Origin: Variovorax boronicumulans
GTDB lineage: Bacteria > Pseudomonadota > Gammaproteobacteria > Burkholderiales > Burkholderiaceae_C
Assembly: GCF_019352895.1 (NCBI RefSeq)
Contig: NZ_JAAAFX010000014.1
Location: 62,001-126,000 of the forward strand
Length of the DNA stretch: 64,000 nucleotides
Reading direction: 5' to 3'
The position numbers and the translations under genes were made by a program. Below are positions 38,652 to 53,542 of this stretch, piece by piece; position 1 is the first letter of the stretch, and every line of letters begins with the position of its first letter. A model generated the notes under the pieces. The model was not told the DNA's origin, did no database searches, and worked only from the letters and a program-made list of their open reading frames with translations.

Positions 38652-40072
38652 AACAGCCTCAAGCCCGCCGCCGGTGCGTTCGGCGATGCGAGATGCGCGG
38701 CGAGCAGGCGTGCCAGCGCCGCGTGATCCGTCTTGCCGCTGGGCGTGCGCGGCCACGCATCGACGGCGTAGAAGCGGCGCGGCAACTTGAAGGGCTCCAG
38801 GCGCTCCTGGCACCACGCCACGAGCGCCGACCGGTCGGTGGCATCCGACAGCACCAGCAAGGCCACCGCCTGCGTGCCGCGCACGTCATGCGGCAGGCCC
38901 TGGACCGATGCGGCGGCCACCGAGGGGTGTCCGGCCAGCACGTTCTCGACTTCTTCCGGAAACAGGTTCTTGCCCTGGACCAGCAGCATGCGCTGCTGCC
39001 GGCCGACCAGATGCAGGAAGCCTTCTTCGTCGATGTGGCCCATGTCGCGCACGGAGAGCCAGTCGCCGTCGCGCAGCACGGCCGTGCTGTCTTCCTCGGC
39101 GGTGAGCGTGACGTAGTTGCTGAACACCATCGGACTGCGCACATAGATCAGGCCGGGTGCGGGCGCCTCGACGCGCAGTTCGACATTGGAGAAGGGCCGG
39201 CCGACCACGTCGTCGGGCACGCTGCGGTCGCTGTCGACCCAGGCGATGAAGGAGGTTTCCGATGCGCCGTAGAACTCGACGATGCGGGCCGACGGGAACA
39301 AGGCCCGCAACGCCGTGGTACGCGCGCGCGGCCAAGGCGCGCCGCTGATCATCACGAGCTGCGTGGCCGTGATGGGGTCCATGCGATGACGCTGGGCATG
39401 CTCGAGCATCAGCAGCAACTGGCTCGGTACCGCGACCAGGCTGCCTGCCTGGCCCAGGCGCAGCGTCTCCAGCGCCGACGCGGCGGAGAACCGTGGCTGC
39501 ACGCGCATGCCCGCGCCGGTCCACAAGCCCAGCAGCGCGCCGAAGAGGAACAGCGAGTGCGACAACCGGCCCGGGACCAGGAGGGTCGTTTGCGTGGCGG
39601 GGCCGAAGCTCTGCACGCAGATGTCGAAGCTGCGCGTCCACGATCCATGCGTGCGCTGGAAGCCCTTGGGCACGCCCGTGCTGCCGGAAGTGAACCCGAT
39701 GTAGAAGGGCGAGCCCGCCGCCACGGGTTCCGCGCCGGGCCTGGCACGCGCAAGCGAGGCCATGCGCACCCGCACTTCGTCGCGCACGCGTGCGGGCCAG
39801 TCGGGGTCGCTCACGGCTGCGGTGCGGCCGCTGGCGATGATCGCCAGGAAGCGCTGCAGCTGGTCGACGGGAGAGGCCGTCTCGTGGGCCCACACGACGG
39901 CGGGCGCGTCTTCGGCATCGAGTGCGGCGGCATCGGTCGCCACGCGCGCCGCGAGCTCGGCGAAGCTCAGTTGCACGTCGCCGTCGTCCAGCGCCATCGC
40001 CGAGGGCGAGTGCCGGGCCCACCAGGCCAGCGGCGCATGAACGGTCTGGAAGTCGGGCGGCTGGAGCGGCAT
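38648..40072 (-). CDS. AMP-forming acyl-CoA ligase (adenylate-forming family)
   Basis: The 474-residue enzyme has the adenylation motifs FTSGSTGVPKGFQ (P-loop), VEFYGASETSF, RDGDWLSVRDMGHIDEEGFLH (with catalytic Asp), GRQQRMLLVQGKNLFPEEVE and the C-terminal PRTPSGKTDH lysine. It activates a carboxylic acid to an acyl adenylate and then a CoA thioester. The gene starts inside the bioY stop (TGATG) and overlaps the thiolase start. The operon suggests a biotin-related acid such as pimelate, by analogy with yhfT beside a bioY paralogue in Bacillus subtilis. Confidence 0.87.
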   Translation of the reverse strand: MPLQPPDFQTVHAPLAWWARHSPSAMALDDGDVQLSFAELAARVATDAAALDAEDAPAVVWAHETASPVDQLQRFLAIIASGRTAAVSDPDWPARVRDEVRVRMASLARARPGAEPVAAGSPFYIGFTSGSTGVPKGFQRTHGSWTRSFDICVQSFGPATQTTLLVPGRLSHSLFLFGALLGLWTGAGMRVQPRFSAASALETLRLGQAGSLVAVPSQLLLMLEHAQRHRMDPITATQLVMISGAPWPRARTTALRALFPSARIVEFYGASETSFIAWVDSDRSVPDDVVGRPFSNVELRVEAPAPGLIYVRSPMVFSNYVTLTAEEDSTAVLRDGDWLSVRDMGHIDEEGFLHLVGRQQRMLLVQGKNLFPEEVENVLAGHPSVAAASVQGLPHDVRGTQAVALLVLSDATDRSALVAWCQERLEPFKLPRRFYAVDAWPRTPSGKTDHAALARLLAAHLASPNAPAAGLRLL

Positions 40073-40647
40073 CAGTCGCGGTCGAGCCGCCAGCTCGGGA
40101 GGCCGCGCGCCACCGTCTGCACCATCAGCGCGCACACCAGGCACTTGATGAGGTCGCCCGGCACGAACACCAGGACCGCGACGGCGGCCTGCTGCAGCGA
40201 GAGCTTGGCCGCCATGGCCAGGCCTGCGATGCCGAACAGGTAGACCACGCCGATCCCGCCGACCAGCGAGGCGACGAAGGTTGCGGCAAACAAGGCCTTG
40301 CCGCGCGCGCCCGACAGGCGCCGCATGATCCAGCCGCAGGTGAAGGCGCCGAACATCCAGCCGACCAGGAAGCCGGAGGAGGGCGCGACGAACACGGCGA
40401 GCCCACCGCGGCCGCCCGACAGCAGCGGCAGCCCGAGCGCCACGGCCAGCAGCAGCAGCGCCACGGCGAGAAAACCGCGCCGAGGCCCAAGAAGGCAACC
40501 TGCGAGCATGACGCCGAGGGTCTGCAGGGTGATCGGCACGCCGAGCGGCAAGTCGATCTTGGGGATCATGCCGAACACCGCGATCAAGGCGGCGAACAGG
40601 GCAACGTAGGACAGCGAGCGGGAGGAGGTGAGCGAGTCGGTGGTCAT
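40072..40647 (-). CDS. bioY: BioY-family biotin uptake protein (ECF S-component)
   Basis: The 191-residue membrane protein has six hydrophobic segments and BioY landmarks (VPITLQTLGVMLAGCLLGPRRG, PSSGFLVGWMFGAF, PGDLIKCLVCALMVQ). It binds biotin and imports it, with or without the BioMN energising module, which is not in this window. It is the first gene of a three-gene operon with an acyl-CoA ligase and a thiolase. Confidence 0.92.
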   Translation of the reverse strand: MTTDSLTSSRSLSYVALFAALIAVFGMIPKIDLPLGVPITLQTLGVMLAGCLLGPRRGFLAVALLLLAVALGLPLLSGGRGGLAVFVAPSSGFLVGWMFGAFTCGWIMRRLSGARGKALFAATFVASLVGGIGVVYLFGIAGLAMAAKLSLQQAAVAVLVFVPGDLIKCLVCALMVQTVARGLPSWRLDRD

Positions 40648-41019
40648 GGCAGGTCGTGAGAGCCCGGCAACTGCCGGTCGCGCGCGAGCCTAACATTCTG
40701 GCGTGCTCCGCCCCGGCCACCGGCGAGCCACTGACGGCCGGTACATCGCGCATCGGCCGCAAGCCACGACCGCCATTGCTTGGCGTGTCAGGACAAGTAT
40801 CATTCCGTCACAATTTGCTTCCAAGGCCGTCTGCTGGCGCTTTCGTCCCTGTGCGGCCCAAGGTCGCGGACAGCGCACAGGGGACGCCGGCCATGAAAAG
40901 GGGCCGCGATGGCGATGTCGATGTCGAAGGGATGCTTCGTCGCCCGCCCGAAGCAATGCAGTCGCGTCACAACGAAACTTCAAAGGGCTTGCTCTGCAAG
41001 GACGGCCCACGCACGACCC
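40648..41019. other. Intergenic region upstream of bioY
   Basis: No gene is supported. I looked for the long BirA-type dyad TTGTAAAC...GTTTACAA and for a BioR-type TTAT...ATAA dyad and saw neither. Weak -10-like TATCAT at 40798-40803 points towards the small gene downstream. Confidence 0.4.
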
Positions 41020-41274
41020 ATGTCGATTTCCATGCTCCAGTCGCTCTCCGAAACGAACTTTCCCGTGACGATCAAGGGCGGCGAGGACGTCGACGCGATC
41101 CACATCCTGGTGATCGCAGGCCATGTGGAAGCCGACATCGCGAAGGCGGTTCGCACGCCCGTCGGCTGGATGAACCCCACCGCCACCGTGACCTCCATCA
41201 CGCGCACCGGCCTCCAGATGCTGCGGCTCTTCCCCAGAAGATCCGGCTCGCGCAAGCGCCTCGGCGCGGACTGA
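41020..41274 (+). CDS. Small hypothetical protein
   Basis: The 84-residue product begins MSISMLQSLSETNFPV and contains GGEDVDAIHILVIAGHVEADIAKAV, followed by a basic C-terminus (RRSGSRKRLG). The frame has the strong third-position G/C bias of real genes here, and a second ATG lies four codons in. I do not recognise a family. It stands alone between the divergent bioY operon and the osmC cluster. The middle may be a small alpha/beta segment with a charged tail; no signal peptide or membrane helix is seen. Confidence 0.5.
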   Translation: MSISMLQSLSETNFPVTIKGGEDVDAIHILVIAGHVEADIAKAVRTPVGWMNPTATVTSITRTGLQMLRLFPRRSGSRKRLGAD

Positions 41275-41387
41275 GGCCGGCGCCGTTCCGGCGGCGTCAT
41301 CCGGACCACGTGCCGCGCAGCGGCCACCGAGCCTCGAGGCGAAGCGTGCCGGCGCGATATGCGGATTCCGAGCAAGCCAGCTTCTTT

Positions 41388-41500
41388 TTCTTCGTTCCCT
41401 GTCGCGCCGCCGGCGCGAAGAATCCCGGGCTTCCGCTGCCCCGGAACCAGGGCGCATGCGTCCCGGCGGGTCCGCCGGGCGTCGTCCCTGGAACGAAGAA
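41388..41500 (+). promoter_or_regulatory. Structured leader upstream of osmC
   Basis: TTCTTCGTTCC (41388-41398) is exactly complementary to GGAACGAAGAA (41490-41500), so an 11-12 bp stem could close a loop of about 90 bases that itself contains the hairpin CCCGGCG/CGCCGGG (41462-41479). The right arm lies 8 bases before the osmC ATG and covers its A-rich ribosome-binding area (GAAGAAAGAA). This suits translational control or a protein site; no known riboswitch class is recognised. Confidence 0.45.
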
Positions 41501-41508
41501 AGAACACC

Positions 41509-42060
41509 ATGAGCCATCTCAACGACTACCTGGCCGAGAAACGCGCGGCCGTGCTGGCGCGCAGCGCCGCCATCGAGGCCGGCACTGCGCAGCCGGCGCA
41601 ATTGAAGGCCACGGTGCGCGCCGAAGGCCGCAGCGGCGTGCGCCGCCTGCGCATCCGCGACCACCAGGTGATCAGCGACAGCCCGCCCGATTTCGCGGGC
41701 TACAACCTGGGCCCGAGCTCGCCCGAACTGCAGCTCGGCGTGCTGGGCACCTGCGTGACCCACATCTTCCTGATCCAGGCGGCCGAGCGCCAGGTGCCGC
41801 TGGAGAGCCTCGAGGTCGAGGTCACCGGCATCATCGATCCGCGCGGCGGCAAGCCGGGCCATGAGCAGACGCCCATCTGGCCGCACCAGATCGCCTACAC
41901 CGTGCACATCGATTCGCCCGCCAGCCGCGCCGACATCGACGCGCTGTTCGAGGCGGTCGAGCGCAACTGCCCGATCCTGAACCTGCTGCGCAATCCGCAG
42001 ACGATCCGGGCCGAGGTCAAGCTCACCAACTCGCTGGCTGACACCCGCGTCGCGGCCTGA
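41509..42060 (+). CDS. OsmC-family protein
   Basis: The 183-residue protein starts MSHLNDYLAEKRAAVLARS and has the OsmC/Ohr fold with a segment LGVLGTCVTHIFLIQAAERQVPLESLEVEVTG. One active-site-type cysteine (GTCVTH) is visible near the helix centre, and Cys in ERNCPILNLL is the likely partner. OsmC/Ohr proteins reduce organic hydroperoxides with two cysteines. The RNPQTI C-terminal part is typical for the branch found with sulfur or oxidoreductase genes. It opens the cluster reaching 50542. Confidence 0.85.
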   Translation: MSHLNDYLAEKRAAVLARSAAIEAGTAQPAQLKATVRAEGRSGVRRLRIRDHQVISDSPPDFAGYNLGPSSPELQLGVLGTCVTHIFLIQAAERQVPLESLEVEVTGIIDPRGGKPGHEQTPIWPHQIAYTVHIDSPASRADIDALFEAVERNCPILNLLRNPQTIRAEVKLTNSLADTRVAA

Positions 42061-42075
42061 ACAGGAGCGCCCGCC

Positions 42076-42885
42076 ATGTCCCTCACGCTCGACCACATCG
42101 TCATCGCCGTCCACGACCTCGACACCACCATCGCCGACTACACCGCCCTGGGCTTCAACGTACAGCGCGGCGGCGACCATCCCGGCCGCTCGACGCACAA
42201 CGCCCTGGTGGTGTTCGCCGACGGCAGCTATTTCGAACTCATCGCCTGGAAGCAGCCCGCGCCGCAGGAGCGCTGGTGGCAACTGCTGCAGCGCCATGGC
42301 GAAGGCATCATCGACTTCGCCCTGCTGCCGCGCAGCGTCGCCGACACCGTGGCCCAGGCCGGCCAGCGCGGCCTGGTGCTCGACGGACCGCTCGAAGGCG
42401 GGCGCCTGCGCCCCGACGGCGAACGCCTGCACTGGCAGACCGCACGGCCGCCGTCCACCGATCTGCCCTTCCTGTGCGGCGACGTCACGCCGCGCGCCTT
42501 GCGCGTGCCCGAGGGCGGCGCGCGCGTGCATCCCAACGGCGCGCTCGGCGTGGCCAGCCTGGCGGTCGCGGTGCACAACCTCGACGCCACGCTGGCGCGC
42601 TACCGCGCGCTGTTCGGCAATGGCGCCCATGTCGCGATCGGGCAGCCCGTGCCGCTGCCGGGGCAGGGCCTGCGGCTGGCGGTGATCGCCTTCGGCAGCA
42701 GCGCGTTGGTGCTGTCCACGGCACGCGAGGCGACCGAGGACCAGGTCGAAGGCCCTTATGCGCTGGTGCTGCGCACCGCCGATGCCACGCAGCCGCTCGG
42801 TGCGCTCGACCGGGTGCGCAGCCATGGCGCGCGCATCGAGTTCGAGCGTGCGGGCACCCCGGCGCCAGCCGTGAAACGCGACTGA
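42076..42885 (+). CDS. VOC-family protein (two-module glyoxalase-like)
   Basis: The 269-residue protein has an N-terminal vicinal-oxygen-chelate module (LDHIVIAVHDLDTTIADYTALGFNV, ELIAWKQPAP) and a second module from about residue 150 (GVASLAVAVHNLDATLARYRALFGN). It resembles the Glyoxalase_3-type family. It begins 15 bases after osmC and precedes the binding-protein gene by about 170 bases, so osmC-VOC may be one unit and the ABC block another. Confidence 0.83.
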   Translation: MSLTLDHIVIAVHDLDTTIADYTALGFNVQRGGDHPGRSTHNALVVFADGSYFELIAWKQPAPQERWWQLLQRHGEGIIDFALLPRSVADTVAQAGQRGLVLDGPLEGGRLRPDGERLHWQTARPPSTDLPFLCGDVTPRALRVPEGGARVHPNGALGVASLAVAVHNLDATLARYRALFGNGAHVAIGQPVPLPGQGLRLAVIAFGSSALVLSTAREATEDQVEGPYALVLRTADATQPLGALDRVRSHGARIEFERAGTPAPAVKRD

Positions 42886-43055
42886 ATTCCGCACCGGGGT
42901 TCACGCGCGAGATGCGGGCATCGCTTATCTGCTGGGCGCATAAGGATGCTACTTAATCGGTGCCCAAAGCACAGGCGCCTGACTACGATTTCCCAGGCCG
43001 GCGAAGCGCTTGCGAGCGCCGCCGGGCCGTTCTTCCTCTCCATCGAAAGTACTTC

Positions 43056-44732
43056 GTGATCGTGTTTTCCAGAAGGTTTGAGCGCGCGGCTGCGGCCGCT
43101 GCCGTCGTGGCTTTGATGGCGTTGGTCGCCGCCTGCTCCAAGACCGCCGATGCGCCGGCCGCCGCGGTCGCCGCGAATTCCTCGGCCCCCGTGACCGGCG
43201 GCACGCTGGTCTACCTGGAGCAGCAGGCGCACACCAACCTGTACCCACCCGCGGGCGGCTTCTATCCGAACGGCGGCATCCTCAACCAGATCACCGACAA
43301 GCTCACCTACCAGGATCCGAAGACGCTCAAGGTCGAGCCCTGGATCGCGGAGTCGTGGACGGTCAACGATGCCGTGACCGAATACACCTTCAAGCTGCGC
43401 GAAGGCGTGACCTTCTCCGACGGCACGCCGCTGGACGCGGCCGCGGTGGCGAAGAACTTCGACACCTTCGGCAAGGGCAACAAGGAACTCAAGCAGCCGG
43501 TGTCCGAGGCCATCAACAACTACGACCGCAGCGAAGTGATCGATGCACGCACGGTCAAGTTCTACTTCAAGAAGCCGTCGCCGGGCTTCCTGCAGGGCAC
43601 CTCGGTGATCGGTTCGGGCCTGGTGTCGCTGAGCACGCTGGCCCGCCCCTTCGAGGAGCTGGGCGACGCGACCCGGATCATCGGCTCCGGCCCCTTCGTC
43701 GTCGCCAGCGAGACGTTGGGCAAGGAACTGGTGCTCGCGGCGCGCAAGGACTACGCCTGGGGCCCCACCACGCTGGCGCACCAGGGCCGCGCGCGACTCG
43801 ACGAGATCAAGCTCATCGTGACGCCCGAGGACAGCGTGCGCATCGGCGCGCTGGTGGCCGGGCAGGCCGGCTTCATCCGCCAGGTGCAGGCCTACGACGA
43901 GAAGCGCGTGAAGGACCAGGGCTTCGCGATCTACGCGCCCTCGACGCGCGGCGTCAACAACAGCATCAACTTCCGTCCGGACAACCCGCTGGTGGCGGAC
44001 GTGCGCGTGCGCCAGGCGCTGCTGCATGCGACCAACACCAAGGAGATCGTCGAGACCCTGTTCTCCTCGAACTACCCGCAAGCCACCTCGGTGATCGCCG
44101 CCACCGCGGCCGGCTACGTGGACCTGTCGGCCAAGCTGGGCTACGACGAAGCCAAGGCCAAGCAGCTGCTCGACGAGGCCGGCTGGACCGTCGGCGCCAA
44201 CGGCACGCGGAGCAAGGACGGCCAGGAACTGGCACTGCGTGCCTACGAGGCGCTGCCCCAGCCGCAGAACAAGGCGACGCTGCAACTGGTGGCGCAGCAG
44301 TGGGCCAAGATCGGCGTCAAGCTCAACGTGCTCACCGGCGACGCGGGCACCACGACCCTCGACAACCTCGACCCGGCCAAGACGGCGGTGCTGCCGACCA
44401 TGGTGGGCCGCGCCGATCCCGACGTGATCAAGAGCCAGTACTACCCGACCAACCGCAACGTGCTGCTGCAGAAGGGCGGCGTGAGCGACAAGGTCAAGGG
44501 CTTCGTGGACGCCAAGCTCAACGGGCTGCTCGAAGGCATCGCCAGCGAGGTCGATCCGGCCAAGCGGCTGGCGCTGGTCGGCGAGGTGCAGAACTACCTG
44601 ATCGACCAAGCCTACGTGATCCCGATCTTCGAAGAGCCGCAGGCCTTCGCGGGCGCGCCGTGGGTCAGAGACGTGGGTTACGAAGCCGTCGGCCGGCCGA
44701 GCTTCTACGCCGCCTGGCTGGCCGCACACTGA
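43056..44732 (+). CDS. Lipoprotein solute-binding protein of an oligopeptide-type ABC importer (TIGR04028/KPN_01854-like)
   Basis: The protein belongs to solute-binding family 5 (LREGVTFSDGTPLDAAAVAKNFD, GSGPFVVASETLGKELVL, YYPTNRNVLLQKGG). It has a bacterial lipobox (ALVAAC) after a hydrophobic stretch, so it is tethered to the membrane. I start it at GTG 43056, giving a normal signal peptide and 558 residues; a GTG at 42960 would add 32 residues without membrane character. The sequence NLYPPAGGFYPNGGILNQI matches the unassigned subfamily known from TIGRFAMs as KPN_01854 (recalled). Confidence 0.88.
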   Translation: MIVFSRRFERAAAAAAVVALMALVAACSKTADAPAAAVAANSSAPVTGGTLVYLEQQAHTNLYPPAGGFYPNGGILNQITDKLTYQDPKTLKVEPWIAESWTVNDAVTEYTFKLREGVTFSDGTPLDAAAVAKNFDTFGKGNKELKQPVSEAINNYDRSEVIDARTVKFYFKKPSPGFLQGTSVIGSGLVSLSTLARPFEELGDATRIIGSGPFVVASETLGKELVLAARKDYAWGPTTLAHQGRARLDEIKLIVTPEDSVRIGALVAGQAGFIRQVQAYDEKRVKDQGFAIYAPSTRGVNNSINFRPDNPLVADVRVRQALLHATNTKEIVETLFSSNYPQATSVIAATAAGYVDLSAKLGYDEAKAKQLLDEAGWTVGANGTRSKDGQELALRAYEALPQPQNKATLQLVAQQWAKIGVKLNVLTGDAGTTTLDNLDPAKTAVLPTMVGRADPDVIKSQYYPTNRNVLLQKGGVSDKVKGFVDAKLNGLLEGIASEVDPAKRLALVGEVQNYLIDQAYVIPIFEEPQAFAGAPWVRDVGYEAVGRPSFYAAWLAAH

Positions 44733-44740
44733 GCCGCTGA

Positions 44741-45679
44741 ATGAGCAAGTACCTCTGGAGCCGCATCGCGCAGGCCTTGGTGGTGCTGTGGGCCGCGTTC
44801 ACCGCGTCCTTCGTGCTGCTGCAGGCCCTGCCCGGGGATGCGGTGCTGATCAAGTTCCTCAACCCCGAACTGGGGCTGGGGCCGACGGAGATCGCCGACA
44901 TCCGCGCCGCCTACGGCGCCGACAGCCCGGTGTGGGAGCGCTATTTCCACACCCTGTGGAATTTCCTGGGCGGCAACTTCGGCTACTCGATGCAGGCTGG
45001 CGTGCCGGTGAGCCAGGGCCTGGCGGTCAACCTGCCGCCGACGCTGCGGCTCGCGAGCTTCGGCTTCGGCGTGGCGCTGCTGCTGGCGGTGGGCCTGGCC
45101 TTCCTGTCGAACCTCACGCGCTTCGCCTGGCTGCGCGCGGCGATCCAGTCGCTGCCCTCGCTGTTCATCTCGGTGCCGGTGTTCTGGCTGGGCATCATGC
45201 TGATCCAGGTCTTCTCGTTCCGGCTCGGCCTGATCCCGGTGATCAACCCGGGCAAGTGGGAAGGGCTGGTGCTGCCCACGCTCACGCTGGCCATCCCGAT
45301 CTCCGCGCCGCTGGCGCAGATCCTCATGCGCAACATCGACCAGGTGCTCACGCAGCCCTTCGTGACCGTGGCGCGGGCCAAGGGCGCGACGCGCAACTGG
45401 GTGCTGTGGAAGCACGTGGCGCGCAACGCCGTGCTGCCGACGCTGACCATCGCGGGCATCCTGTTCGGCGAACTGCTGGCCGGCGCGGTGGTGACCGAGG
45501 CGGTGTTCGGGCTCAACGGCCTGGGCAGCCTCACGCAGCAGGCGGTGGGCAACCAGGACACGGCGGTGCTGCAGGCCATCGTGGTGATCTCCGCCGCGGC
45601 CTTCGTTCTCATCAATCTCGTGGTCGACCTGCTGTATCCGGTGCTCGACCCGCGCCTGCGCGTCCAACTGGGCCACTGA
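44741..45679 (+). CDS. ABC transporter permease (DppB-like)
   Basis: The 312-residue membrane protein has six hydrophobic segments, the periplasmic loop start LQALPGDAVLIKFLNPELGLG and the cytoplasmic loop FVTVARAKGATRNWVLWKH. It lies 8 bases after the binding-protein gene and 4 bases before the second permease gene. Confidence 0.9.
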   Translation: MSKYLWSRIAQALVVLWAAFTASFVLLQALPGDAVLIKFLNPELGLGPTEIADIRAAYGADSPVWERYFHTLWNFLGGNFGYSMQAGVPVSQGLAVNLPPTLRLASFGFGVALLLAVGLAFLSNLTRFAWLRAAIQSLPSLFISVPVFWLGIMLIQVFSFRLGLIPVINPGKWEGLVLPTLTLAIPISAPLAQILMRNIDQVLTQPFVTVARAKGATRNWVLWKHVARNAVLPTLTIAGILFGELLAGAVVTEAVFGLNGLGSLTQQAVGNQDTAVLQAIVVISAAAFVLINLVVDLLYPVLDPRLRVQLGH

Positions 45680-45683
45680 CACC

Positions 45684-46628
45684 ATGAGCCTCACTCTCGA
45701 GATCGATTCGCTGGCGCCCACGGGCGCGGCCCGCACCGCGGTCGCGAACCCGGTGGCCGCCAGCCCGGCGGCCGTTCCGGCGAAGGCCACGCCCGCATGG
45801 CGCAAGGGCCTGCACAAGGCGTGGAAGGCCGTGCGCCGCGCGCAACCCGGTCTGCTGCTCGCCTGGCTGGTGATCGCCACCGTCACGCTGTGGGCCATCG
45901 CGCCGGGCCTGTTCTCGGGCTACAACCCGGTGCAGGGCACCTCGGGCCAGCACCTGCTGGCACCGAGCGCCACCCACCTGCTGGGCACCGACGGCCTGGG
46001 CCGCGACCTCTATGCGCGCGTGGTGCACGGCGCGGTGCATTCGCTGTCGGGCGCTTTCCTGGCCGTGACCGTCGGCCTGCTGCTGGGCACCGCGATCGGC
46101 GTGCTCGCGGGCTCGGTCGGCGGGCTGGTGGAAGACGCGCTGATGCGCGTGGTCGACGTGTTGCTGGCCGTGCCCTCGCTGCTGCTGTCGCTGAGCATCA
46201 TCATCATCCTGGGCTTCGGCACGCTGAACGCCGCGCTCGCGGTCGGCATCGCCTCGGTGGCGGGCTTCGCGCGGCTGGTGCGCTCGGAGGTGGTGCGGGT
46301 GCGCCGCGCCGAATACGTCGAGGCGGCCTTCGGCAGCGGCGGCAGCTTTCGCAGCGTGCTCTGGCGCCATGTGCTGCCCAACTCGCTGACCTCGGTGGTG
46401 GCCATGGCCGCGCTGCAGTTCGGCAGCGCCATCCTCTCGATCTCGACCCTGGGCTTCCTGGGCTACGGCGCGCCGCCGCCCACGCCGGAATGGGGCCTGC
46501 TGATCGCCGAAGGCCGCAACTACATCTCGACCGGCTGGTGGCTCACCACCGTGCCGGGCCTGGTCGTGGTGGCCGTGGTGCTGTCGGCCAACCGCATCAG
46601 CGTGGCGGTGTCGAAGGCGCGCCGATGA
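45684..46628 (+). CDS. ABC transporter permease (DppC-like)
   Basis: The 314-residue membrane protein carries the DppC hallmark HLLGTDGLGRDLYARVVHG and the loop EYVEAAFGSGGSFRSVLWRHV. An alanine-rich cytoplasmic N-terminus of about 40 residues precedes the first helix. Its stop overlaps the ATPase start (ATGA). Confidence 0.9.
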   Translation: MSLTLEIDSLAPTGAARTAVANPVAASPAAVPAKATPAWRKGLHKAWKAVRRAQPGLLLAWLVIATVTLWAIAPGLFSGYNPVQGTSGQHLLAPSATHLLGTDGLGRDLYARVVHGAVHSLSGAFLAVTVGLLLGTAIGVLAGSVGGLVEDALMRVVDVLLAVPSLLLSLSIIIILGFGTLNAALAVGIASVAGFARLVRSEVVRVRRAEYVEAAFGSGGSFRSVLWRHVLPNSLTSVVAMAALQFGSAILSISTLGFLGYGAPPPTPEWGLLIAEGRNYISTGWWLTTVPGLVVVAVVLSANRISVAVSKARR

Positions 46629-48298
46629 GCGCGGCCGTCGCACCGGTGCTCGAGGTCGAAGGGCTGGCGATCGGCTACCGCGACCAGGACACGCTGCACC
46701 GTGTGGTGCACGACGTGTCCTTCACCATCCACCCGGGCGAGATCGTCGCGCTGGTGGGCGAATCGGGCTCGGGCAAGACCACCACCGCACAGGCGGTGAT
46801 CGGCCTGCTGCCCGAGAACGGCCAGCGCGAGGCCGGCGCGATCCGGCTCAACGGCGTCGACGTCGCGAACTGGTCGCAGAAGCGCTTCGACGGCATCCGT
46901 GGGTCCGTCGTGAGCCTGATCCCGCAGGACCCGACGAGCTCGCTGAACCCGGTGCGCACCGTGGGCGAGCAGGTGGCCGAGATCCTGCGCATCCACCGCC
47001 GCGTCGAGCGGCGCGAGATCAACGCCCGCGTGGTCGAGCTGCTGGCCCGCGTCGGGCTCTCGCAGCCCGAACTGCGCGCGCGCCAGTACCCGCACGAACT
47101 CTCGGGCGGCATGAAGCAGCGCGTGCTGATCGCGATCGCGATCGCGTTGCAGCCCGCGCTGATCATTGCCGATGAGCCCACCAGCGCGCTCGACGTGACG
47201 GTGCAAAAGCGCATCCTCGACCTGATCGACGAACTGCGCCTGGCCTACGGCACGGCCGTGCTGCTGGTGACGCACGACCTGGGCGTGGCCACCGACCGCG
47301 CGAGCCGCATCGTGGTGCTGCAGGGCGGCCGCATCCAGGAGCAGGGCCCGACGGCCGAGCTGCTGCGCAAGCCGAGCAGCCCCTACACGCGCCAGCTGCT
47401 GGCCGACGCGCCCTCGCTCGCGATGGCGGACTTCCGGCCGGAGCGCACACCGGCGGCAACCGCGGAAGACGACTTCGCCATCGTGGTCGAACACCTGGTG
47501 CACGACTTCGCCGTGGGCGGCAAGGGGGGCACGCGCTTCCGCGCGGTCGACGACGTGTCCTTCCGCGTGCGGCGCGGCACCACGCATGCGATCGTGGGCG
47601 AGTCGGGCTCGGGCAAGACCACCACCATCCGCGACGTGGTGGGTTTTCGCCAGCCGACCAGCGGCCGCATCCTGATCGAAGGCACCGAACTCACGACCCT
47701 GCGCGGCGAGGCGCTGCGGCAGTTCCGCCGCAAGATCCAGCTGGTCCACCAGAACCCCTTCAGCTCGCTCGACCCGCGCCAGACCATCTTCCAGATCATC
47801 GAGGAGCCGTTGCGCAACTTCGATCCGCTGGACGCCGCCGAGCGCCAGCGCCGCGTGGAGGACATCCTCGCGCGCGTCGGCCTGCCGCCCGCGGTGCTGC
47901 AACGCCGGCCGCATGCGCTGTCGGGCGGGCAGCGCCAGCGCGTGGCGATCGCGCGCGCGCTGGTGCTCGAGCCGCGGGTGCTGGTGCTGGACGAGGCCGT
48001 CTCGGCGCTCGACGTGACCGTGCAGGCGCAGATCCTGCGGCTGCTCGACCAACTGCAGGCCGAACTCGGCCTGACCTATCTCTTCATTTCGCACGACCTC
48101 GCGGTGGTGCGCCAGATCGCGGACACCGTGTCGGTGCTGCAGAACGGGCGGCAGGTCGATGCCGGTCGCGTGGAAGACGTCTTCCTCTGGCCGCACAGCG
48201 ACTACACGCGCGAACTCATCGACGCTATCCCCGGCAAAAGGAATTCCGATCTTGTTTCACAACATTCAACGCCTGGGCTTCTTCAGCCGGCTTCTTGA
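46625..48298 (+). CDS. Fused double ABC ATPase (DppD-DppF in one chain)
   Basis: The 557-residue protein contains two complete ATPase modules. Module 1 (residues ~5-260) has [31 protein letters not shown] and LIIADEPTSALDVT. Module 2 (~290-540) has [31 protein letters not shown] and VLVLDEAVSALDVT. Both keep the switch histidine (LVTHDLG, FISHDLA). A single chain therefore replaces the usual two genes. The 3' end overlaps the monooxygenase gene by 47 bases in another frame. Confidence 0.9.
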   Translation: MSAAVAPVLEVEGLAIGYRDQDTLHRVVHDVSFTIHPGEIVALVGESGSGKTTTAQAVIGLLPENGQREAGAIRLNGVDVANWSQKRFDGIRGSVVSLIPQDPTSSLNPVRTVGEQVAEILRIHRRVERREINARVVELLARVGLSQPELRARQYPHELSGGMKQRVLIAIAIALQPALIIADEPTSALDVTVQKRILDLIDELRLAYGTAVLLVTHDLGVATDRASRIVVLQGGRIQEQGPTAELLRKPSSPYTRQLLADAPSLAMADFRPERTPAATAEDDFAIVVEHLVHDFAVGGKGGTRFRAVDDVSFRVRRGTTHAIVGESGSGKTTTIRDVVGFRQPTSGRILIEGTELTTLRGEALRQFRRKIQLVHQNPFSSLDPRQTIFQIIEEPLRNFDPLDAAERQRRVEDILARVGLPPAVLQRRPHALSGGQRQRVAIARALVLEPRVLVLDEAVSALDVTVQAQILRLLDQLQAELGLTYLFISHDLAVVRQIADTVSVLQNGRQVDAGRVEDVFLWPHSDYTRELIDAIPGKRNSDLVSQHSTPGLLQPAS

Positions 48299-49301
48299 CG
48301 ACGCCACCGCCGCCGAGCGCTACCGCCTCGTCACCGAACAGATCGTGCACGCCGAAGCCCTGGGCTTCGATTCGGCCTGGGTCGCGCAGCACCACTTCCA
48401 CGAGGCCGAGGGCGGCCTGCCGTCGCCGCTGGTCTTTCTCGCTTCGGTGGCGGCGCGCACGCAGCGCATCCGGCTCGGCACCGGCATCGTCACGCTGCCG
48501 CTGGAGAACCCGGTGCGCGTGGCCGAAGATGCGGTTGTGCTCGACCTGATCGCCGGCGGGCGGCTGGAGTTCGGCGTGGGCACGGGCGGCACGCCCTCGT
48601 CCTTCACCGCCTTCGGCCAGCACAGCGAGCAGCGCGCGACGGTGTTCGCCAGCCACCTCGCGCAGTTGCGCGAAGCCTGGGCCGGACGCCCGCTGCTGGG
48701 CGGCGACCGGCTGTACCCGGTCTCGGCGCAGCTGCCCGACCGGGTCTGGCAGGCCAGCTTCTCGGTCAGCGGCGGTGCGCGCGCGGGCCTGGCCGGCGAC
48801 GGCCTGATGCTCTCGCGCACCCAGCCCCGGCCCGCCGATGCGCCGCACGCGACGCTCGCCGACATCCAGCTGCCGATCATCGAGGCCTACCTGGCCGCGC
48901 TGCCCGCGAGCCGCGCGCCGCGCATCGTGGGTTCGCGCTCGGTGTTCGTCGCCGACGATCGCGCGCTCGCGCGCCGGCTGGCGGAGGAGGGCCTGCGCCG
49001 CAGCCTCGCGCGCCAGAACGATCCGTCGCTCGCGGGCGTGCCCTTCACGCTCGACGAACTGATCGCGCGCCAGGACGTGCACGTGGGCACGCCCGACGAG
49101 GTGATCGCCTCGCTGCGCGCCGACCGCACCCTGGCGCACGTGACCGACCTGGTGTGCCAGGTGCACTCGGTGGACCCGCCGCACCGCCACATCCTGCGTT
49201 CGATCGAGCTCATCGCCACCGAGGTCGCACCCGCGCTCGGCTGGGCCGGGCCGTCGACGAACAACCTTTCTTCCCACGCACCTCTTCAGGCCATCGCATG
49301 A
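48252..49301 (+). CDS. Luciferase-like FMN-dependent monooxygenase (TIGR04027/KPN_01858-like)
   Basis: The 349-residue LLM-class protein has FHNIQRLGFFSRLLDD at the N-terminus, then SAWVAQHHFHEAEGGLPSPLV, RTQRIRLGTGIVTLPLENP, GRLEFGVGTGG and GTPDEVIASLRADRTL. I place the start at TTG 48252, after AAAGGA at about 48237, because upstream codons are the ATPase 3' end in another frame. It needs reduced flavin from a reductase that is not encoded in this cluster. It belongs to a family reported only by name (KPN_01858). Confidence 0.87.
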   Translation: MFHNIQRLGFFSRLLDDATAAERYRLVTEQIVHAEALGFDSAWVAQHHFHEAEGGLPSPLVFLASVAARTQRIRLGTGIVTLPLENPVRVAEDAVVLDLIAGGRLEFGVGTGGTPSSFTAFGQHSEQRATVFASHLAQLREAWAGRPLLGGDRLYPVSAQLPDRVWQASFSVSGGARAGLAGDGLMLSRTQPRPADAPHATLADIQLPIIEAYLAALPASRAPRIVGSRSVFVADDRALARRLAEEGLRRSLARQNDPSLAGVPFTLDELIARQDVHVGTPDEVIASLRADRTLAHVTDLVCQVHSVDPPHRHILRSIELIATEVAPALGWAGPSTNNLSSHAPLQAIA

Positions 49302-49924
49302 CTGTCTCCTCCCTTCCGGACGTGATCGACCAACTCGTCGGCATCCAGCCCGGCGACGCGCTCGACGCGATCCGCGCCCAGCGCCAGCAGGCGCGCCTGC
49401 ACGCGCAGCAAAGCCACATCGCGCTGTTCGAGCCCGCCGATCTCGCGGCCTCGACCTTCACCGCGGCCGAGCGCCACGCGCTGGCGGTTTTCGTGGCCGG
49501 GCTGCACGGCCAGGTCGAACTGGCGGCCTTCCATGCGAGCGCGTTGCTGCTGGCCGGCACGCCGACCGAACTGCTGGATGCCGTGAGCGCCGAGGCCGAA
49601 GCCGGCGCGGGCCGCGGCCCTTACGGCAGCTACCCGGCCGGCCCGCTGAGCGCGGAGAACGCGCCCGGTCCGCTGTACGTGGCAGGCGCGGCGAACCTTG
49701 CCGTGCTCGGGACGCGGCTCGCCGCGGGCCTGGCGCATGCGCACCGGCTGGTGTTCCATCCGCGCGATGCCGAGGCGGCCTGGCTGCAGGCGCTGCTCGA
49801 TGCGGGTTGGTCGACCACCGAGATCGTCACGCTGTCGCAGCTGGTGTCCTTCCTGAGCTTCCAGATCCGTGTGATCGCCGGCCTGCGCGCGCTGGCCGCG
49901 CAGCCCTCCCTGGCCATCGCCTGA
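49298..49924 (+). CDS. CMD-domain protein (TIGR04029/Avi_7170-like)
   Basis: The 208-residue all-helical protein resembles the carboxymuconolactone decarboxylase/AhpD superfamily (ERHALAVFVAGLHGQVELAAFHASALLL, GWSTTEIVTLSQLVSFLSFQIRVIAGLRAL). The usual C-x-x-C redox pair is absent, unlike its neighbour, so it may be a structural partner. The ATG overlaps the monooxygenase stop (ATGA). Confidence 0.83.
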   Translation: MTVSSLPDVIDQLVGIQPGDALDAIRAQRQQARLHAQQSHIALFEPADLAASTFTAAERHALAVFVAGLHGQVELAAFHASALLLAGTPTELLDAVSAEAEAGAGRGPYGSYPAGPLSAENAPGPLYVAGAANLAVLGTRLAAGLAHAHRLVFHPRDAEAAWLQALLDAGWSTTEIVTLSQLVSFLSFQIRVIAGLRALAAQPSLAIA

Positions 49925-49936
49925 ACAGACTTCCCC

Positions 49937-50542
49937 ATGAGCACCCAGACCCTCTCGCATCCCAGCAATGTGCCGCCCAACGCCTTCACGCAGGCGCAGC
50001 TTGAATGGCTGCCCTGGCTCGAGCCGCTGCCGCAGGAAGAACTGACCGAGCGCCACCTGGCGGGCCTGGTCGATGCCTCGCGCGCCAAGTCGCCGTACTT
50101 CATGCTGCTGGCGCGCGACCCGGACATCCTCGGCGCGCGCACCCGCACCGACAAGGACATCTTCTACAACCCCGAGGCCGGCCTGCCGCGCGCCGAGCGC
50201 GAACTGGCCGCTGCGGCCACCTCGCGCTACAACGGCTGCATCTACTGCGCGTCGGTGCACGCGCGCTTCGCCACGCATTTCTCGCCGCGCTCGGACGACA
50301 TCCAGCGCCTGCTCGACGAAGGCGTGGGCGCGGCGCTGGACCCACGCTGGGACGCGATCGTGGCCGCGTCGGTCGCGCTGTCGGCGACGCCGGTCGCGTT
50401 CGACGCCACCCATGTCGAGGCGCTGCGGGCGGTGGGGCTCGACGATCTCGCGGTCTCGGACGTGGTCCACGGCGCCGCCTTCTTCAACTGGGCCAACCGG
50501 TTGATGCTGTCGCTGGGCGAGCCGCAACTGCCGGCGGCCTGA
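49937..50542 (+). CDS. AhpD-like alkylhydroperoxidase-domain protein (TIGR04030/Avi_7169-like)
   Basis: The 201-residue protein contains the AhpD redox motif CIYCASVHARF (C-x-x-C-x3-H) preceded by ERELAAAATSRYNG, and a C-terminal helical part ending in FFNWANRLMLSLGEP. AhpD relatives reduce peroxides through this cysteine pair. It lies 12 bases after the CMD gene and ends the cluster; the SDR gene on the other strand stops 26 bases further on. Confidence 0.87.
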   Translation: MSTQTLSHPSNVPPNAFTQAQLEWLPWLEPLPQEELTERHLAGLVDASRAKSPYFMLLARDPDILGARTRTDKDIFYNPEAGLPRAERELAAAATSRYNGCIYCASVHARFATHFSPRSDDIQRLLDEGVGAALDPRWDAIVAASVALSATPVAFDATHVEALRAVGLDDLAVSDVVHGAAFFNWANRLMLSLGEPQLPAA

Positions 50543-50567
50543 GCGAGCGCGTCAGCGGCGCATGCGG

Positions 50568-51353
50568 CTACAGCGCCGCGGTGACGCCGCCGTCGACGTA
50601 CAGGATGTGGCCGTTGACGAAGCGCGACGCGTCGCTGGCCAGGAAGATCGCGGCGCCGACCAGGTCTTCGACGTGTCCCCAGCGGCGCGAAGGCGTGCGG
50701 TTCAACAGCCAGGCCGTGAAGGCGGCATCGTCCACCAGGGCCTGCGTGAGTTCGGTCTGGAAGTAGCCCGGCCCCAGGCCGTTGACCTGCAGCCCGTGCG
50801 GACCCCAGTCGATGGCCATGCCCTTGGTGAGCATCTTCACGGCGCCCTTGCTCGCCGTATACGGCGCGATGCCGGGGCGCCCGAGTTCGCTCTGCACCGA
50901 GCAGATGTTGATGATCTTGCCGCGGCCGCGCGCGATCATGTGGCGCGCCACGGGTTGCGAGACGTAGAACACGCTGTCGACGTTGGTCCGCATGACGGCC
51001 TGCCAGTCGGCGTGCGAAAAGGACTCCAGCGGCGCGCGGCGCTGCATGCCGGCGTTGTTCACCAGGATGTCGATCGCGCCGTCGGTCCGTTCATGGTCGT
51101 CGATGGCCTTGGCCGCCGCCTGCGGGTCGGTGACGTCGAAGGCCAGGGTCTGGACGGCATGACCGAGCGCCTGCAGGCGCTGTGCGGCGTCCTGCAGCCG
51201 CGACGCGTCGCGGCCGTTGAGCAGGACGCGTGCGCCGGCCGAAGCCAGGCCGGCCGCCAGCGCAAAGCCGATGCCGCCGCTCGAGCCGGTGACCAGTGCG
51301 GTACGCCCGCGCAGGTCGAAGGCTGCGAGGCCGGGTGGCAGATTCTCTTTCAT
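50568..51353 (-). CDS. SDR-family oxidoreductase, gluconate 5-dehydrogenase-like
   Basis: The 261-residue short-chain dehydrogenase shows the NAD(P) motif TALVTGSSGGIGFALA, the NNAG motif (ILVNNAGMQRR), and the catalytic Ser/Tyr/Lys set in INICSVQSELGRPGIAPYTASKGA. The sequence around RRAPLESFSHADWQAV resembles IdnO/gluconate 5-dehydrogenases, which interconvert gluconate and 5-ketogluconate. Its start overlaps the stop of a gluconokinase stub, which supports the sugar-acid assignment. Confidence 0.85.
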   Translation of the reverse strand: MKENLPPGLAAFDLRGRTALVTGSSGGIGFALAAGLASAGARVLLNGRDASRLQDAAQRLQALGHAVQTLAFDVTDPQAAAKAIDDHERTDGAIDILVNNAGMQRRAPLESFSHADWQAVMRTNVDSVFYVSQPVARHMIARGRGKIINICSVQSELGRPGIAPYTASKGAVKMLTKGMAIDWGPHGLQVNGLGPGYFQTELTQALVDDAAFTAWLLNRTPSRRWGHVEDLVGAAIFLASDASRFVNGHILYVDGGVTAAL

Positions 51354-51484
51354 GGGAGTCGATGTCCTTCACGTATGGTGTCGTCGGGGTCGGCTGCGAG
51401 ACCGCTCAGCGCCTGCGCCACGGCCTCGGACTTGCCGCAGCCGGCGATGCCCATCACCACGGTATGCGCAGACGCGTCTTTCAT
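51350..51484 (-). pseudogene. Truncated gluconokinase (N-terminal stub)
   Basis: A 44-codon frame opens with ATG at 51482-51484 and reads VVMGIAGCGKSEAVAQAL, the Walker A loop (G-x-x-G-C-G-K-S) of GntK-type gluconokinases, followed by DTIREGHRLP, which looks like a decayed form of the family's EGD--HP motif. A TGA that overlaps the SDR start (ATGA) ends it. Full gluconokinases are about 165-180 residues, so about three quarters of the gene is missing. It sits directly upstream of a gluconate 5-dehydrogenase-like gene. Confidence 0.68.
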
Positions 51485-51676
51485 GGTGCTGTGCATGGTA
51501 GCGGCGTCGGCGAAGGCGGGCCGGCGACAAGGGCTGCCAGGTTCTCGCGTGCTGGCGCTATGCTCGCAACACCCGTCGCGCCCTTCGCCTCAGCGGAGCA
51601 TGCCGCCCTGCGGCAGAGCGGCTTTGCCAGCGCGGGGCCCGGGCATCGAATGGAATCTTGAGAGCGAGACTGACGG

Positions 51677-52477
51677 ATGAGTGAAGGTACGAAAGAGCCA
51701 AAGGGCCAGCCGCTGGTGACAGGCCTGCTGCGGGGGCTCGAGGTGCTGCGCTGTTTCGACCTGGGGCACGAGCGCCTCGGCAGTTCGGACATCGCGCGCA
51801 TGACGGGGCTGCCACAGCCCACGGTGTGGCGGCTGTGCAAGACGCTGGAGCACGGCGGCTACCTGATCGCCGACCGGGACGGTTCGCGCTTCCGCCCGGG
51901 CCTGTCGATCCTTACGCTGGGCTATGCGGCCCTCGACACGCTCGAACTGGCCGAGCTCGCGCGCCCGCTGCTGCAGGACGTGGCCACGCGCTTCCATGGC
52001 GGCGCCAGCCTGTCGACGCGCGAGCGCACCTCGATGCTCTACCTGCAGCGCTACGAGGCGCCGAACGCGGTGCTCAACGTCAACGTGCGCGTCGGCTCCG
52101 AGGTGCCGATCATGAACAGCGGCACCGGCTGGGCCTACCTGGCCGGACTCGACGATGCCGCGCGCGCGCAGGCGCTGCACGAGTGCCAGGCGGCCAACGG
52201 CGCGCTCTACAAGAAGCACGAGAAGGGCGCGCTGAAGGCTGTGGCCGAATACCGCAAGCTGGGCTTCATCACCAACATCGACGTGTTCTTCCCGGGCCTG
52301 AGCACGGTGGCGGTGCCGCTGCCCACCGGGCCGGGCGGCACGCCCTACGTGCTCAACTGCACCTCGCCCTCGGCTGCGCTCGCGGACCCCGAGGTGCGCC
52401 ACGAGGCCGGCCTCGCGCTGATGCATGCGGTCGAACAGCTGCGGCGCGCGGCGGCGCGGCTCGACGCGGCAGGCTAG
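51677..52477 (+). CDS. IclR-family transcriptional regulator
   Basis: The 266-residue protein has an N-terminal winged helix-turn-helix (LLRGLEVLRCFDL, SSDIARMTGLPQPTVWRLCKTL) and an IclR effector domain (VPIMNSGTGWAYLAGLDD, YRKLGFITNIDVFFPGLSTVAVPL). It lies directly upstream of the catabolic operon at 52695 and in the same direction; 217 bases separate them, with repeated half-sites at 52634-52663. It probably controls that operon and may autoregulate. Confidence 0.9.
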   Translation: MSEGTKEPKGQPLVTGLLRGLEVLRCFDLGHERLGSSDIARMTGLPQPTVWRLCKTLEHGGYLIADRDGSRFRPGLSILTLGYAALDTLELAELARPLLQDVATRFHGGASLSTRERTSMLYLQRYEAPNAVLNVNVRVGSEVPIMNSGTGWAYLAGLDDAARAQALHECQAANGALYKKHEKGALKAVAEYRKLGFITNIDVFFPGLSTVAVPLPTGPGGTPYVLNCTSPSAALADPEVRHEAGLALMHAVEQLRRAAARLDAAG

Positions 52478-52633
52478 GCTTTTCCTGCACCGTCCCTGCA
52501 GCACAGCGCAGGGCACCTCCTCATCCCCTGAACGCGCGGCCGCCCGAGGCCGGCCGCGGCCGTGCGCGCGCGGCCTTTGTCCGTTCTAGGTGAACTCCCT
52601 GATGCAAACGCCGCTCCTTGGCTCTTACGATTG

Positions 52634-52663
52634 GTGAATAGACTATTCATTAAGTGAATAGAC
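52634..52663. promoter_or_regulatory. Triple half-site operator candidate before the catabolic operon
   Basis: TGAATA (52635-52640), TATTCA (52644-52649) and TGAATA (52655-52660) create two overlapping inverted repeats with 3- and 5-base spacers. The 10-bp string GTGAATAGAC is directly repeated with a 20-base period (52634 and 52654). The elements lie 30-60 bases before the GTG start of the hydrolase gene, as expected for an IclR-type operator over the promoter. Confidence 0.55.
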
Positions 52664-52694
52664 GAAGTTCAAATCTACTTTTCAAGGAAGCAAC

Positions 52695-53537: not shown

Positions 53538-53542
53538 AGGCC

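What the first reader, a model, noticed from the sequence alone, without database searches (positions are those of the whole stretch)
41509..50542. Conserved but unassigned OsmC / VOC / lipoprotein-ABC / LLM / CMD / AhpD system
Seen: eight co-directional genes, most overlapping or within 15 bases, in the order OsmC, two-module VOC, family-5 lipoprotein, two permeases, a fused double ATPase, a luciferase-like monooxygenase, a CMD protein without C-x-x-C, and an AhpD-like protein with C-x-x-C. From memory, the monooxygenase, binding protein, CMD and AhpD-like products match TIGRFAM families TIGR04027 to TIGR04030, defined by co-occurrence and without an assigned function. Inference: import of a peptide-like or sulfur-containing compound, its flavin-dependent oxidation, and disposal of a resulting hydroperoxide by OsmC/AhpD. 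The cluster encodes no flavin reductase.
Basis: partly seen in the sequence, partly recalled or inferred. Interest (0 to 1): 0.85.

Follow-up and report, generated by a model that had tools for sequence, protein, structure and literature searches.

The report
Orphan cluster for scavenging organic sulfur
A widely shared but functionally unassigned set of bacterial genes (an importer, a flavin oxygenase and thiol-based peroxidase-like proteins) is most likely a kit for taking up an organic sulfur compound and cutting it open when ordinary sulfur runs short.

Summary
The association is real: among 398 genomes, all 15 with TIGR04030 and all 8 with TIGR04028 over cut-off are among the 16 with TIGR04027, co-located. 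LLM-CMD-AhpD is the core; the ABC is replaceable; OsmC is a local addition. New evidence favours sulfur scavenging: the matching C. glutamicum operon (cg2678-74; identity inferred) is reported in the McbR sulfur regulon; CysB, MetQ, SfnB-like, rhodanese and taurine-type genes flank some copies; sister LLMs sit with SsuD- or SsuA-like genes. Proposed: import of an anionic S-substituted compound, FMNH2/O2 attack at its C-S bond, thiol repair by AhpD/CMD. Substrate unknown. Against: enrichment statistics are modest; no panel sulfur gene lies within 10 kb of the window's copy; iron signals exist (Klebsiella orthologue higher under iron limitation; fhuE near four Pantoea copies). A Klebsiella orthologue (PDB 8K74) is published as a very slow poly(acrylic acid) oxygenase.

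The parts
41509..42060 (+). OsmC-family protein with two conserved cysteines (C82, C154)
   Evidence: PF02566 54.5 bits; cysteines kept in 23 of 23; found in 23 of 94 loci, divergent from the SBP gene in 15 of them
42076..42885 (+). VOC / Glyoxalase_3 protein
   Evidence: PF13468 138.9 bits; 28 of 94 loci by profile; VOC also annotated in the Erwinia and Pantoea operons inspected; Glyoxalase_3 after the core in Nonomuraea L113
42924..42944 (+). Palindrome CTTAT-N11-ATAAG in the promoter region before the SBP gene; putative LysR-type (CysB-like) site
   Evidence: shorter form: 1 in window, 0 in 100 shuffles; 2 places in the 6.53-Mb genome; conserved promoter block in most of 20 chosen Comamonadaceae-type upstream regions, by eye; not enriched over the backward control across 13 genomes
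43056..44732 (+). Family-5 solute-binding lipoprotein, TIGR04028
   Evidence: 875.2 bits, cut-off 468.5; nearest solved structure 4oer NikA, E 1.5e-30
44741..45679 (+). ABC permease 1 (Opp/Nik type)
   Evidence: best Opp2B 252.9 bits, below cut-off 350
45684..46628 (+). ABC permease 2 (Opp/Nik type)
   Evidence: best Opp2C 223.2 bits, below cut-off 300
46625..48298 (+). Fused double ABC ATPase
   Evidence: two ABC_tran stretches in one 557-aa protein
48252..49301 (+). Luciferase-like FMN monooxygenase, TIGR04027; close relative of PDB 8K74
   Evidence: 539.9 bits, cut-off 412.9; 8K74 E 6.4e-114
49298..49924 (+). CMD protein, TIGR04029: AhpD-like fold without CxxC
   Evidence: 189.6 bits, cut-off 100.75; AF2 mean pLDDT 87.1; top fold hits are AhpD-like proteins, best E 3.0e-3, none at E 0.001 or below
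49937..50542 (+). AhpD-like protein with CxxC, TIGR04030
   Evidence: 285.0 bits, cut-off 233.15; CxxC and His kept in 74 of 74 rows; in one frame with CMD in 8 of 9 loci titled Enterobacterales

Best explanation
A sulfur-scavenging module. Step 1 (family shown, substrate inferred): the TIGR04028 ABC importer brings in an anionic, S-substituted organic compound. Step 2 (enzyme class shown, reaction inferred): the TIGR04027 enzyme, fed FMNH2 by a housekeeping reductase, oxygenates the compound at or next to sulfur so that the C-S bond breaks, giving a carbonyl fragment and a thiol or sulfenic acid. Step 3 (redox motifs shown, role inferred): the CMD/AhpD pair, one polypeptide in most Enterobacterales loci seen, and in Comamonadaceae also OsmC, reduce the sulfenic acid or stray peroxide through their cysteines. 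VOC handles the carbonyl or thiohemiacetal, and an M20 deacylase in Pantoea releases the amine. Expression is expected when sulfate or cysteine is scarce.
For: (1) Published regulation: C. glutamicum cg2678, cg2677, cg2675 and cg2674 (peptide-type ABC periplasmic subunit, permease, 'duplicated ATPase', 'carboxymuconolactone decarboxylase') are marked McbR* in a table of PMC2807442. cg2678-74 is named among McbR-regulon genes less transcribed in a cysR mutant under sulphur starvation in PMC2580772. cg2678 rises (M 4.99, McbR column R) with ssuR, ssuD1, ssuC, ssuB and metY in PMC6892785. C. glutamicum is the only one of 14 control genomes over cut-off for TIGR04028, 04029 and 04030. (2) Neighbours: CysB family over cut-off (L042), DszC/SfnB-like (below cut-off), multi-rhodanese and M20 proteins; MetQ/NlpA over cut-off directly before the LLM in L224 and L226; TauABC and sulfonate SBP. 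(3) Count: 12 of 55 non-redundant neighbourhoods against 3 of 60 control windows, p = 0.007. (4) Sister LLMs (221-268 bits by my profile) in 4 of 4 genomes lie with SsuD- or SsuA-like genes. (5) A promoter palindrome shared with a MetN-, TauD- and SsuA-like operon of the same genome, and a similar site between MetN-like and MetQ genes in an Acidovorax. (6) Three arginines and one serine of the 8K74 pocket are invariant in 15 orthologues. (7) KPN_01858, for which TIGR04027 is named, is listed with TauC among K. pneumoniae proteins higher under iron limitation, which cuts both ways.
Against: The panel chosen beforehand (E. coli Tau, Ssu, CysB) alone gives 7 of 55 against 2 of 60, p = 0.06; the other panel members were chosen after seeing loci. 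43 of 55 neighbourhoods, the window's included, have no panel gene within about 10 kb. In 27 positive genomes the SsuA-family genes listed were not close to the LLM: the nearest I read is about 26 kb away, and the list was truncated. The palindrome is not enriched: 5 forward places in 13 genomes against 9 for the backward control. I could not fetch C. glutamicum sequence, so identity with cg2674-78 is inferred; its TIGR04027 match is below cut-off. The CysR effect there is absent from the direct comparison, the starvation was not sulfur-specific (1 mM sulfate present), and a heme regulator acts on cg2675-78. Iron or nickel signals: KPN_01858 up under iron limitation; fhuE annotated near 4 of 5 Pantoea copies; FetAB and a 'nickel transporter' in L052; a protein that I read by eye as a NiCoT nickel/cobalt permease in L224 and L225. 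The 8K74 authors report PAA oxidation with NADPH and none with FMNH2.
Confidence: 0.58

Rival explanations
1. Import of a peptide, opine, siderophore-like or metal chelate (iron, nickel or staphylopine-like) followed by oxidation to free the metal or nitrogen.
For: SBP and permeases are nearest to the NikA, CntA and GsiB group; the Klebsiella namesake KPN_01858 is higher under iron limitation with siderophore proteins; heme-responsive HrrA is said to regulate cg2675-78; fhuE near 4 of 5 Pantoea copies, FetAB and a nickel transporter in L052; a NiCoT-like protein by eye in L224 and L225.
Against: SBP and permeases are far below the metal-transporter cut-offs; the importer is replaced by a Liv-type ABC in several lineages; TauC rises in the same iron-limited list; McbR, CysB and MetQ context is not explained. 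The frequency of iron genes near the loci was not tested against controls.
Confidence: 0.18
2. Poly- or oligocarboxylate oxidation: the LLM hydroxylates poly(acrylic acid)-like anions, as published for the Klebsiella relative PCX02514 (PDB 8K74).
For: Direct assay and crystal structure (PMC11354265); four of five pocket residues conserved.
Against: kcat 0.00214 per second; 0 occurrences of 'gene cluster' and 'alkylhydroperoxidase' in the main text; does not explain the McbR, CysB or MetQ context.
Confidence: 0.06
3. One reading: the oxidation makes an organic hydroperoxide that OsmC and AhpD destroy.
For: OsmC cysteines and AhpD CxxC intact; LLM enzymes form flavin hydroperoxides (general knowledge).
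Against: OsmC not found in 71 of 94 loci; the published sulfur control is not explained by peroxide defence alone. AhpC- or AhpF-like partners were not searched for. Not exclusive of the main reading.
Confidence: 0.11
4. Detoxification of a plant or microbial electrophile or antibiotic rather than nutrition.
For: Many listed records come from soil or plants; VOC and LLM enzymes can act in detoxification (general knowledge).
Against: Member of a sulfur repressor's regulon in C. glutamicum; carries importers; sulfur-acquisition neighbours.
Confidence: 0.07

Closest known systems
CmoO/CmoJ S-alkylcysteine salvage (Bacillus subtilis; PMC10863075, part 1 of 3 read)
   Same: LLM-type flavoenzymes break a C-S bond and leave a sulfenic acid that must be reduced, then deacetylated; a cmo/yxe-like gene set (GNAT, two LLMs, amidohydrolase, amino-acid ABC) lies beside the TIGR04028 operon in Pantoea dispersa.
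   Different: Here one LLM of another family, a family-5 ABC, AhpD/CMD proteins and no acetyltransferase among the nine genes.
YxeK / 2SC pathway (PMC9706529, abstract and passages)
   Same: FMN monooxygenase, ABC importer, deacetylase (an M20 amidohydrolase only in Pantoea here).
   Different: TIGR04027 is a separate LLM group; acetyltransferase absent; the ABC class differs (recalled).
SsuEADCB alkanesulfonate system of E. coli
   Same: ABC importer plus FMNH2-dependent LLM for sulfur starvation; sister LLMs of TIGR04027 sit beside SsuD-like genes.
   Different: No reductase gene, SBP of another family, LLM not SsuD.
C. glutamicum cg2674-cg2678 (McbR regulon)
   Same: SBP, permease(s), duplicated ATPase, CMD-type protein; TIGR04028, 04029 and 04030 over cut-off in that genome.
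   Different: No TIGR04027 over cut-off; substrate unknown; sequence identity not checked here.
Klebsiella PCX02514, PDB 8K74 (PMC11354265)
   Same: Close relative of the LLM (E 6.4e-114); R13, R128, S188, R189 match R10, R125, S186, R187 (my count on the alignment).
   Different: Published as a poly(acrylic acid) oxygenase; its operon is not discussed in what I read; H253 is Q255 here.

Membership tests
TIGR04027-04030 co-occurring families | Whole-protein score over the curated cut-off for LLM, SBP, CMD and AhpD-like | tested here: met
   all four
TIGR04027-04030 co-occurring families | Genes co-located across genomes | tested here: met
   (positions): 15 of 15 AhpD and 8 of 8 SBP genomes over cut-off, of 398, within 1.8 and 5.2 kb of the LLM; 94 loci. 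TIGR04029 co-occurrence was not tested this way
Organosulfur scavenging systems (Ssu/Tau/Cmo/Yxe class) | Control by sulfur supply | tested here: inconclusive
   Published for the C. glutamicum operon, whose identity is inferred; not measured for the window
Organosulfur scavenging systems (Ssu/Tau/Cmo/Yxe class) | Sulfur genes nearby more often than in control windows | tested here: inconclusive
   12 of 55 against 3 of 60 (p 0.007, panel partly post hoc); beforehand panel 7 of 55 against 2 of 60 (p 0.06)
Organosulfur scavenging systems (Ssu/Tau/Cmo/Yxe class) | Cleavage of a C-S bond by the monooxygenase | not testable with these tools
   needs enzyme assay
CmoO/CmoJ or YxeK pathway | Acetyltransferase and LLM of the same families in the operon | tested here: not met
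   best LLM families are TIGR04027, then TIGR04020 (97.0 bits, cut-off 244.45) and TIGR03558 MsnO8 (82, cut-off 166.95); no acetyltransferase among the nine genes
SsuD alkanesulfonate monooxygenase | SsuD model over cut-off | tested here: not met
   no SsuD model (TIGR03565, NF001939) among the 25 of 28 families shown
Nickel (Nik) or dipeptide (Dpp) importer | SBP and permeases over equivalog cut-offs | tested here: not met
   the double ATPase exceeds NikD and NikE cut-offs only as a sum of two stretches
AhpD alkylhydroperoxidase | CxxC with following His in the AhpD core | tested here: met
   TIGR00778 40.7 bits over 27.8
AhpD alkylhydroperoxidase | Peroxidase activity with an AhpC partner | not testable with these tools
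   needs assay

The most novel reading that the evidence does not exclude
The module is an undescribed oxidative desulfurisation pathway for pre-acylated cysteine S-conjugates (mercapturates, the excreted detoxification products of plants and animals). LLM cleavage yields an N-acyl-cysteine sulfenic acid, and the CMD/AhpD pair is a dedicated sulfenic-acid reductase rather than a peroxidase. The lack of an acetyltransferase together with the M20 deacylase in the inspected Pantoea operons would fit a substrate that arrives already acylated.
Probability: 0.2. Interest if true: 0.75.

Novelty: new variant of a known kind. Interest (0 to 1): 0.55.

Why it matters
Four families that NCBI lists as hypothetical equivalogs occur on chromosomes and plasmids of many Proteobacteria and some Actinobacteria. 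Linking them to sulfur supply gives a concrete, cheap test (sulfur-source growth and induction). It also questions a published physiological role (poly(acrylic acid) breakdown), and it proposes a function for AhpD/CMD proteins as thiol-repair partners of a flavin C-S oxygenase.

Tried and rejected
Nickel, dipeptide or glutathione transporter identity: not supported by SBP and permease cut-offs. OsmC as a core gene: rejected (23 of 94). A known RNA family: none at gathering threshold in 36000-56000. SsuA-family clustering in 27 positive genomes: not close among the matches listed. Palindrome enrichment: not found. At two mismatches in nine Acidovorax, Comamonas and Delftia genomes, 9 places were listed: 4 are the operons' own promoters, 2 of the other 5 lie before Met or SsuA-family transporters; 9 backward-control hits were counted and not inspected. 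The promoter block ATAASGATGCTACTTAATA was found only at this operon (2 of 6 genomes), so by itself it shows no sulfur regulon. The first gene caller was wrong and replaced. The first enrichment run wrongly dropped CysB genes abutting the core; corrected.

Literature on the cluster's function: searches (open-licence PMC library only). They gave PMC11354265 for the LLM, one mention of KPN_01858 (PMC7194016) and the C. glutamicum papers; other listed papers were not opened, save those named next. Papers, what was seen: PMC11354265 abstract, introduction, sections 2.1, 2.2, 2.4 and passages; PMC10863075 part 1 of 3; PMC9706529 abstract lines and passages; PMC2580772 section 2.2 and one passage; PMC2807442 one table passage (the meaning of the star in McbR* was not seen); PMC6892785, PMC9491836, PMC1779776, PMC7194016 passages; PMC12757645 listing only (its find returned nothing). 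Rey et al. 2005 was seen only as a reference.

Full report
What is there. The nine plus-strand genes at 41509-50542 are real and ordered OsmC, VOC, SBP, permease, permease, double ATPase, LLM, CMD, AhpD-like. Four exceed the curated cut-offs of TIGR04028, TIGR04027, TIGR04029 and TIGR04030. Pfam supports the OsmC, Glyoxalase_3, SBP_bac_5 and Bac_luciferase assignments. A 170-base gap separates VOC from SBP and contains the palindrome CTTAT-N11-ATAAG.

Is the association real? In an even draw of 398 genomes of the phylum, 16 exceed the TIGR04027 cut-off, 15 TIGR04030 and 8 TIGR04028; only a few best candidates per genome were scored. All 15 and all 8 are among the 16, AhpD within 1.1-1.8 kb and SBP within 4.4-5.2 kb of the LLM by start positions. 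One LLM genome (G373) has neither. Lower-scoring TIGR04030 relatives exist in six further genomes, and one genome (G095) has a distant SBP below cut-off. In 61 near relatives, 12 have the LLM at E up to 1e-60, 10 of them over the cut-off, all in the window's genus, so the cluster is patchy even within the genus. An LLM match is found in 124 of 72,556 plasmid-collection records.

Anatomy in 94 loci (window, 13 plasmid-collection records, 80 genome contigs), chosen by LLM similarity and counted anywhere in the stretch: LLM 94, AhpD 89, CMD 82, ATPase 73, SBP 70, permeases 69 and 69, VOC 28, OsmC 23. Of the 12 loci below my CMD threshold, 8 are Enterobacterales in which CMD and AhpD are one frame; the other 4 are L091, L109, L116 and L125. 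A ninth locus titled Enterobacterales (L089, 'Pantoea sp. 18069') has separate genes and shares flank families with L042 and L107. Five loci lack AhpD (L091, L096, L109, L116, L125; L091 and L096 are short or end early). So LLM-CMD-AhpD is the core. OsmC occurs in Variovorax, Acidovorax, Comamonas, Delftia and one unclassified MAG, divergent from SBP in 15 of 23. Five inspected Pantoea records (agglomerans, dispersa, vagans, piersonii, SOD02) have an M20 amidohydrolase, in dispersa only a short piece, between the CMD-AhpD fusion and VOC; Erwinia sp. E602 has VOC without it.

Sulfur context. Proteins near the core include a CysB-family regulator over its cut-off (L042, 410.2 of 402; relatives in L057, L058, L078), DszC/SfnB-like oxidoreductases below cut-off (L060, L123; relatives L059, L043), multi-rhodanese proteins (L107, L070; relatives L042, L056, L073) and an M20 amidohydrolase (L054). 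TauA or sulfonate SBP genes are annotated near A. vitis-type and R. tumorigenes copies. MetQ/NlpA over cut-off lies directly before the LLM in L224 and L226. Count: 55 non-redundant neighbourhoods (724 kb of flank) against 60 hand-placed 20-kb windows at round coordinates in 13 positive genomes (1200 kb): the E. coli panel chosen beforehand 7 against 2 (one-sided p 0.062), all panel genes 12 against 3 (p 0.0074). The extra panel members were picked after seeing loci, and controls and loci are mostly different genomes, so this supports but does not decide. The window's own flanks hold no panel gene.

Signals that point elsewhere. fhuE is annotated near four of five Pantoea copies, and L052 also has FetAB and a 'nickel transporter'. 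In L224 and L225 a protein after the Liv genes looks by eye like a NiCoT nickel/cobalt permease. KPN_01858 is listed among K. pneumoniae proteins higher under iron limitation, next to siderophore proteins and TauC. HrrA is said to act on cg2675-78. No control count was made for these.

Sister family. Below the TIGR04027 cut-off lies a paralogue group in four genomes. In three it is a tandem pair beside an NtaA-type LLM and an SsuD-like gene (378.8 bits, cut-off 510, in L213); in the fourth a single copy near an SsuA-like SBP (below cut-off) and an NtaA-type LLM.

Published regulation. C. glutamicum is the only one of 14 control genomes over cut-off for TIGR04028, TIGR04029 and TIGR04030. cg2678, cg2677, cg2675 and cg2674 are described as peptide-type ABC (periplasmic subunit, permease, duplicated ATPase) plus carboxymuconolactone decarboxylase and marked McbR*. 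cg2678-74 is named among McbR-regulon genes lower in a cysR mutant under sulphur starvation, though not in the direct-effect comparison. cg2678 is among the strongest induced genes with cys, ssu and metY genes on total starvation, which was not sulfur-specific. That these are the same proteins is inferred from family and gene order; I could not fetch the sequence.

Promoter. The palindrome occurs at two places in the 6.53-Mb genome. The other lies directly before MetN-like, MetI-like (by eye), MetQ-like, TauD-like, SsuA-family and TauB-like genes, all those scored being below cut-off. Upstream regions of 20 chosen loci share a block with LysR-type half-sites, clear by eye in about 17. One Acidovorax genome has a similar site between MetN-like and MetQ genes. 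Counts are no higher than the backward control, so this is a hint only.

Enzyme. The LLM is a close relative of Klebsiella PCX02514, PDB 8K74, reported to oxidise poly(acrylic acid) with kcat 0.00214 per second, NADPH-dependent and not FMNH2-dependent. Its Arg10, Arg125, Ser186 and Arg187 are R13, R128, S188 and R189 here (counted by eye) and are invariant in 15 orthologues; His253 is Q255. An Arg-rich pocket suits a carboxylated substrate, but some of these residues could bind the flavin phosphate instead. The CMD protein is predicted to have an AhpD-like fold (best E 3.0e-3, probability 1.00, TM 0.56 and 0.62) without the CxxC, so CMD and AhpD probably form one complex (inference from fold and fusion).

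Mechanism. Commitment: sulfur scavenging by oxidative C-S cleavage with thiol repair (0.58 for sulfur scavenging as the role; the individual steps are less certain). The CmoO/CmoJ pathway is the closest model, since it also ends in a sulfenic acid that must be reduced. Shown: genes, families, co-occurrence, redox motifs, fusions, transporter swapping. Inferred: substrate, reaction, order of steps, regulation in the window's organism.

Noticed in passing
   Followed up: partly
L198 180-7448 (window genome C13 near 2.51 Mb): Gene run with MetN-, MetQ-, TauD-, SsuA- and TauB-like members behind the only other CTTAT-N11-ATAAG palindrome of the genome.
   Followed up: partly
L223-L226: LLM-CMD-AhpD followed by a Liv-type ABC, with a divergent family-5 SBP and, in two of four, MetQ upstream; L224 and L225 also have a NiCoT-like protein (by eye) beyond the Liv genes.
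   Followed up: partly
L052, L054, L220, L221 (Pantoea plasmid records): fhuE (ferric-siderophore receptor) annotated within about 8 kb of the operon in four Pantoea species; not compared with controls.
   Followed up: no
L109, L116, L125: TIGR04027-type LLM without CMD or AhpD on long enough contigs; L109 and L116 have ATPases of my taurine/nitrate-type cluster in the stretch.
   Followed up: no
window 41020-41274: Small plus-strand ORF (84 aa) before OsmC, with a relative in L055; function not examined.
   Followed up: no
window 51677-57635: Separate downstream group read by eye as IclR regulator, alpha/beta hydrolase, amidohydrolase, Bug-type SBP, fumarylacetoacetate-hydrolase-like and SDR genes: looks like an unrelated catabolic cluster.
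   Followed up: no
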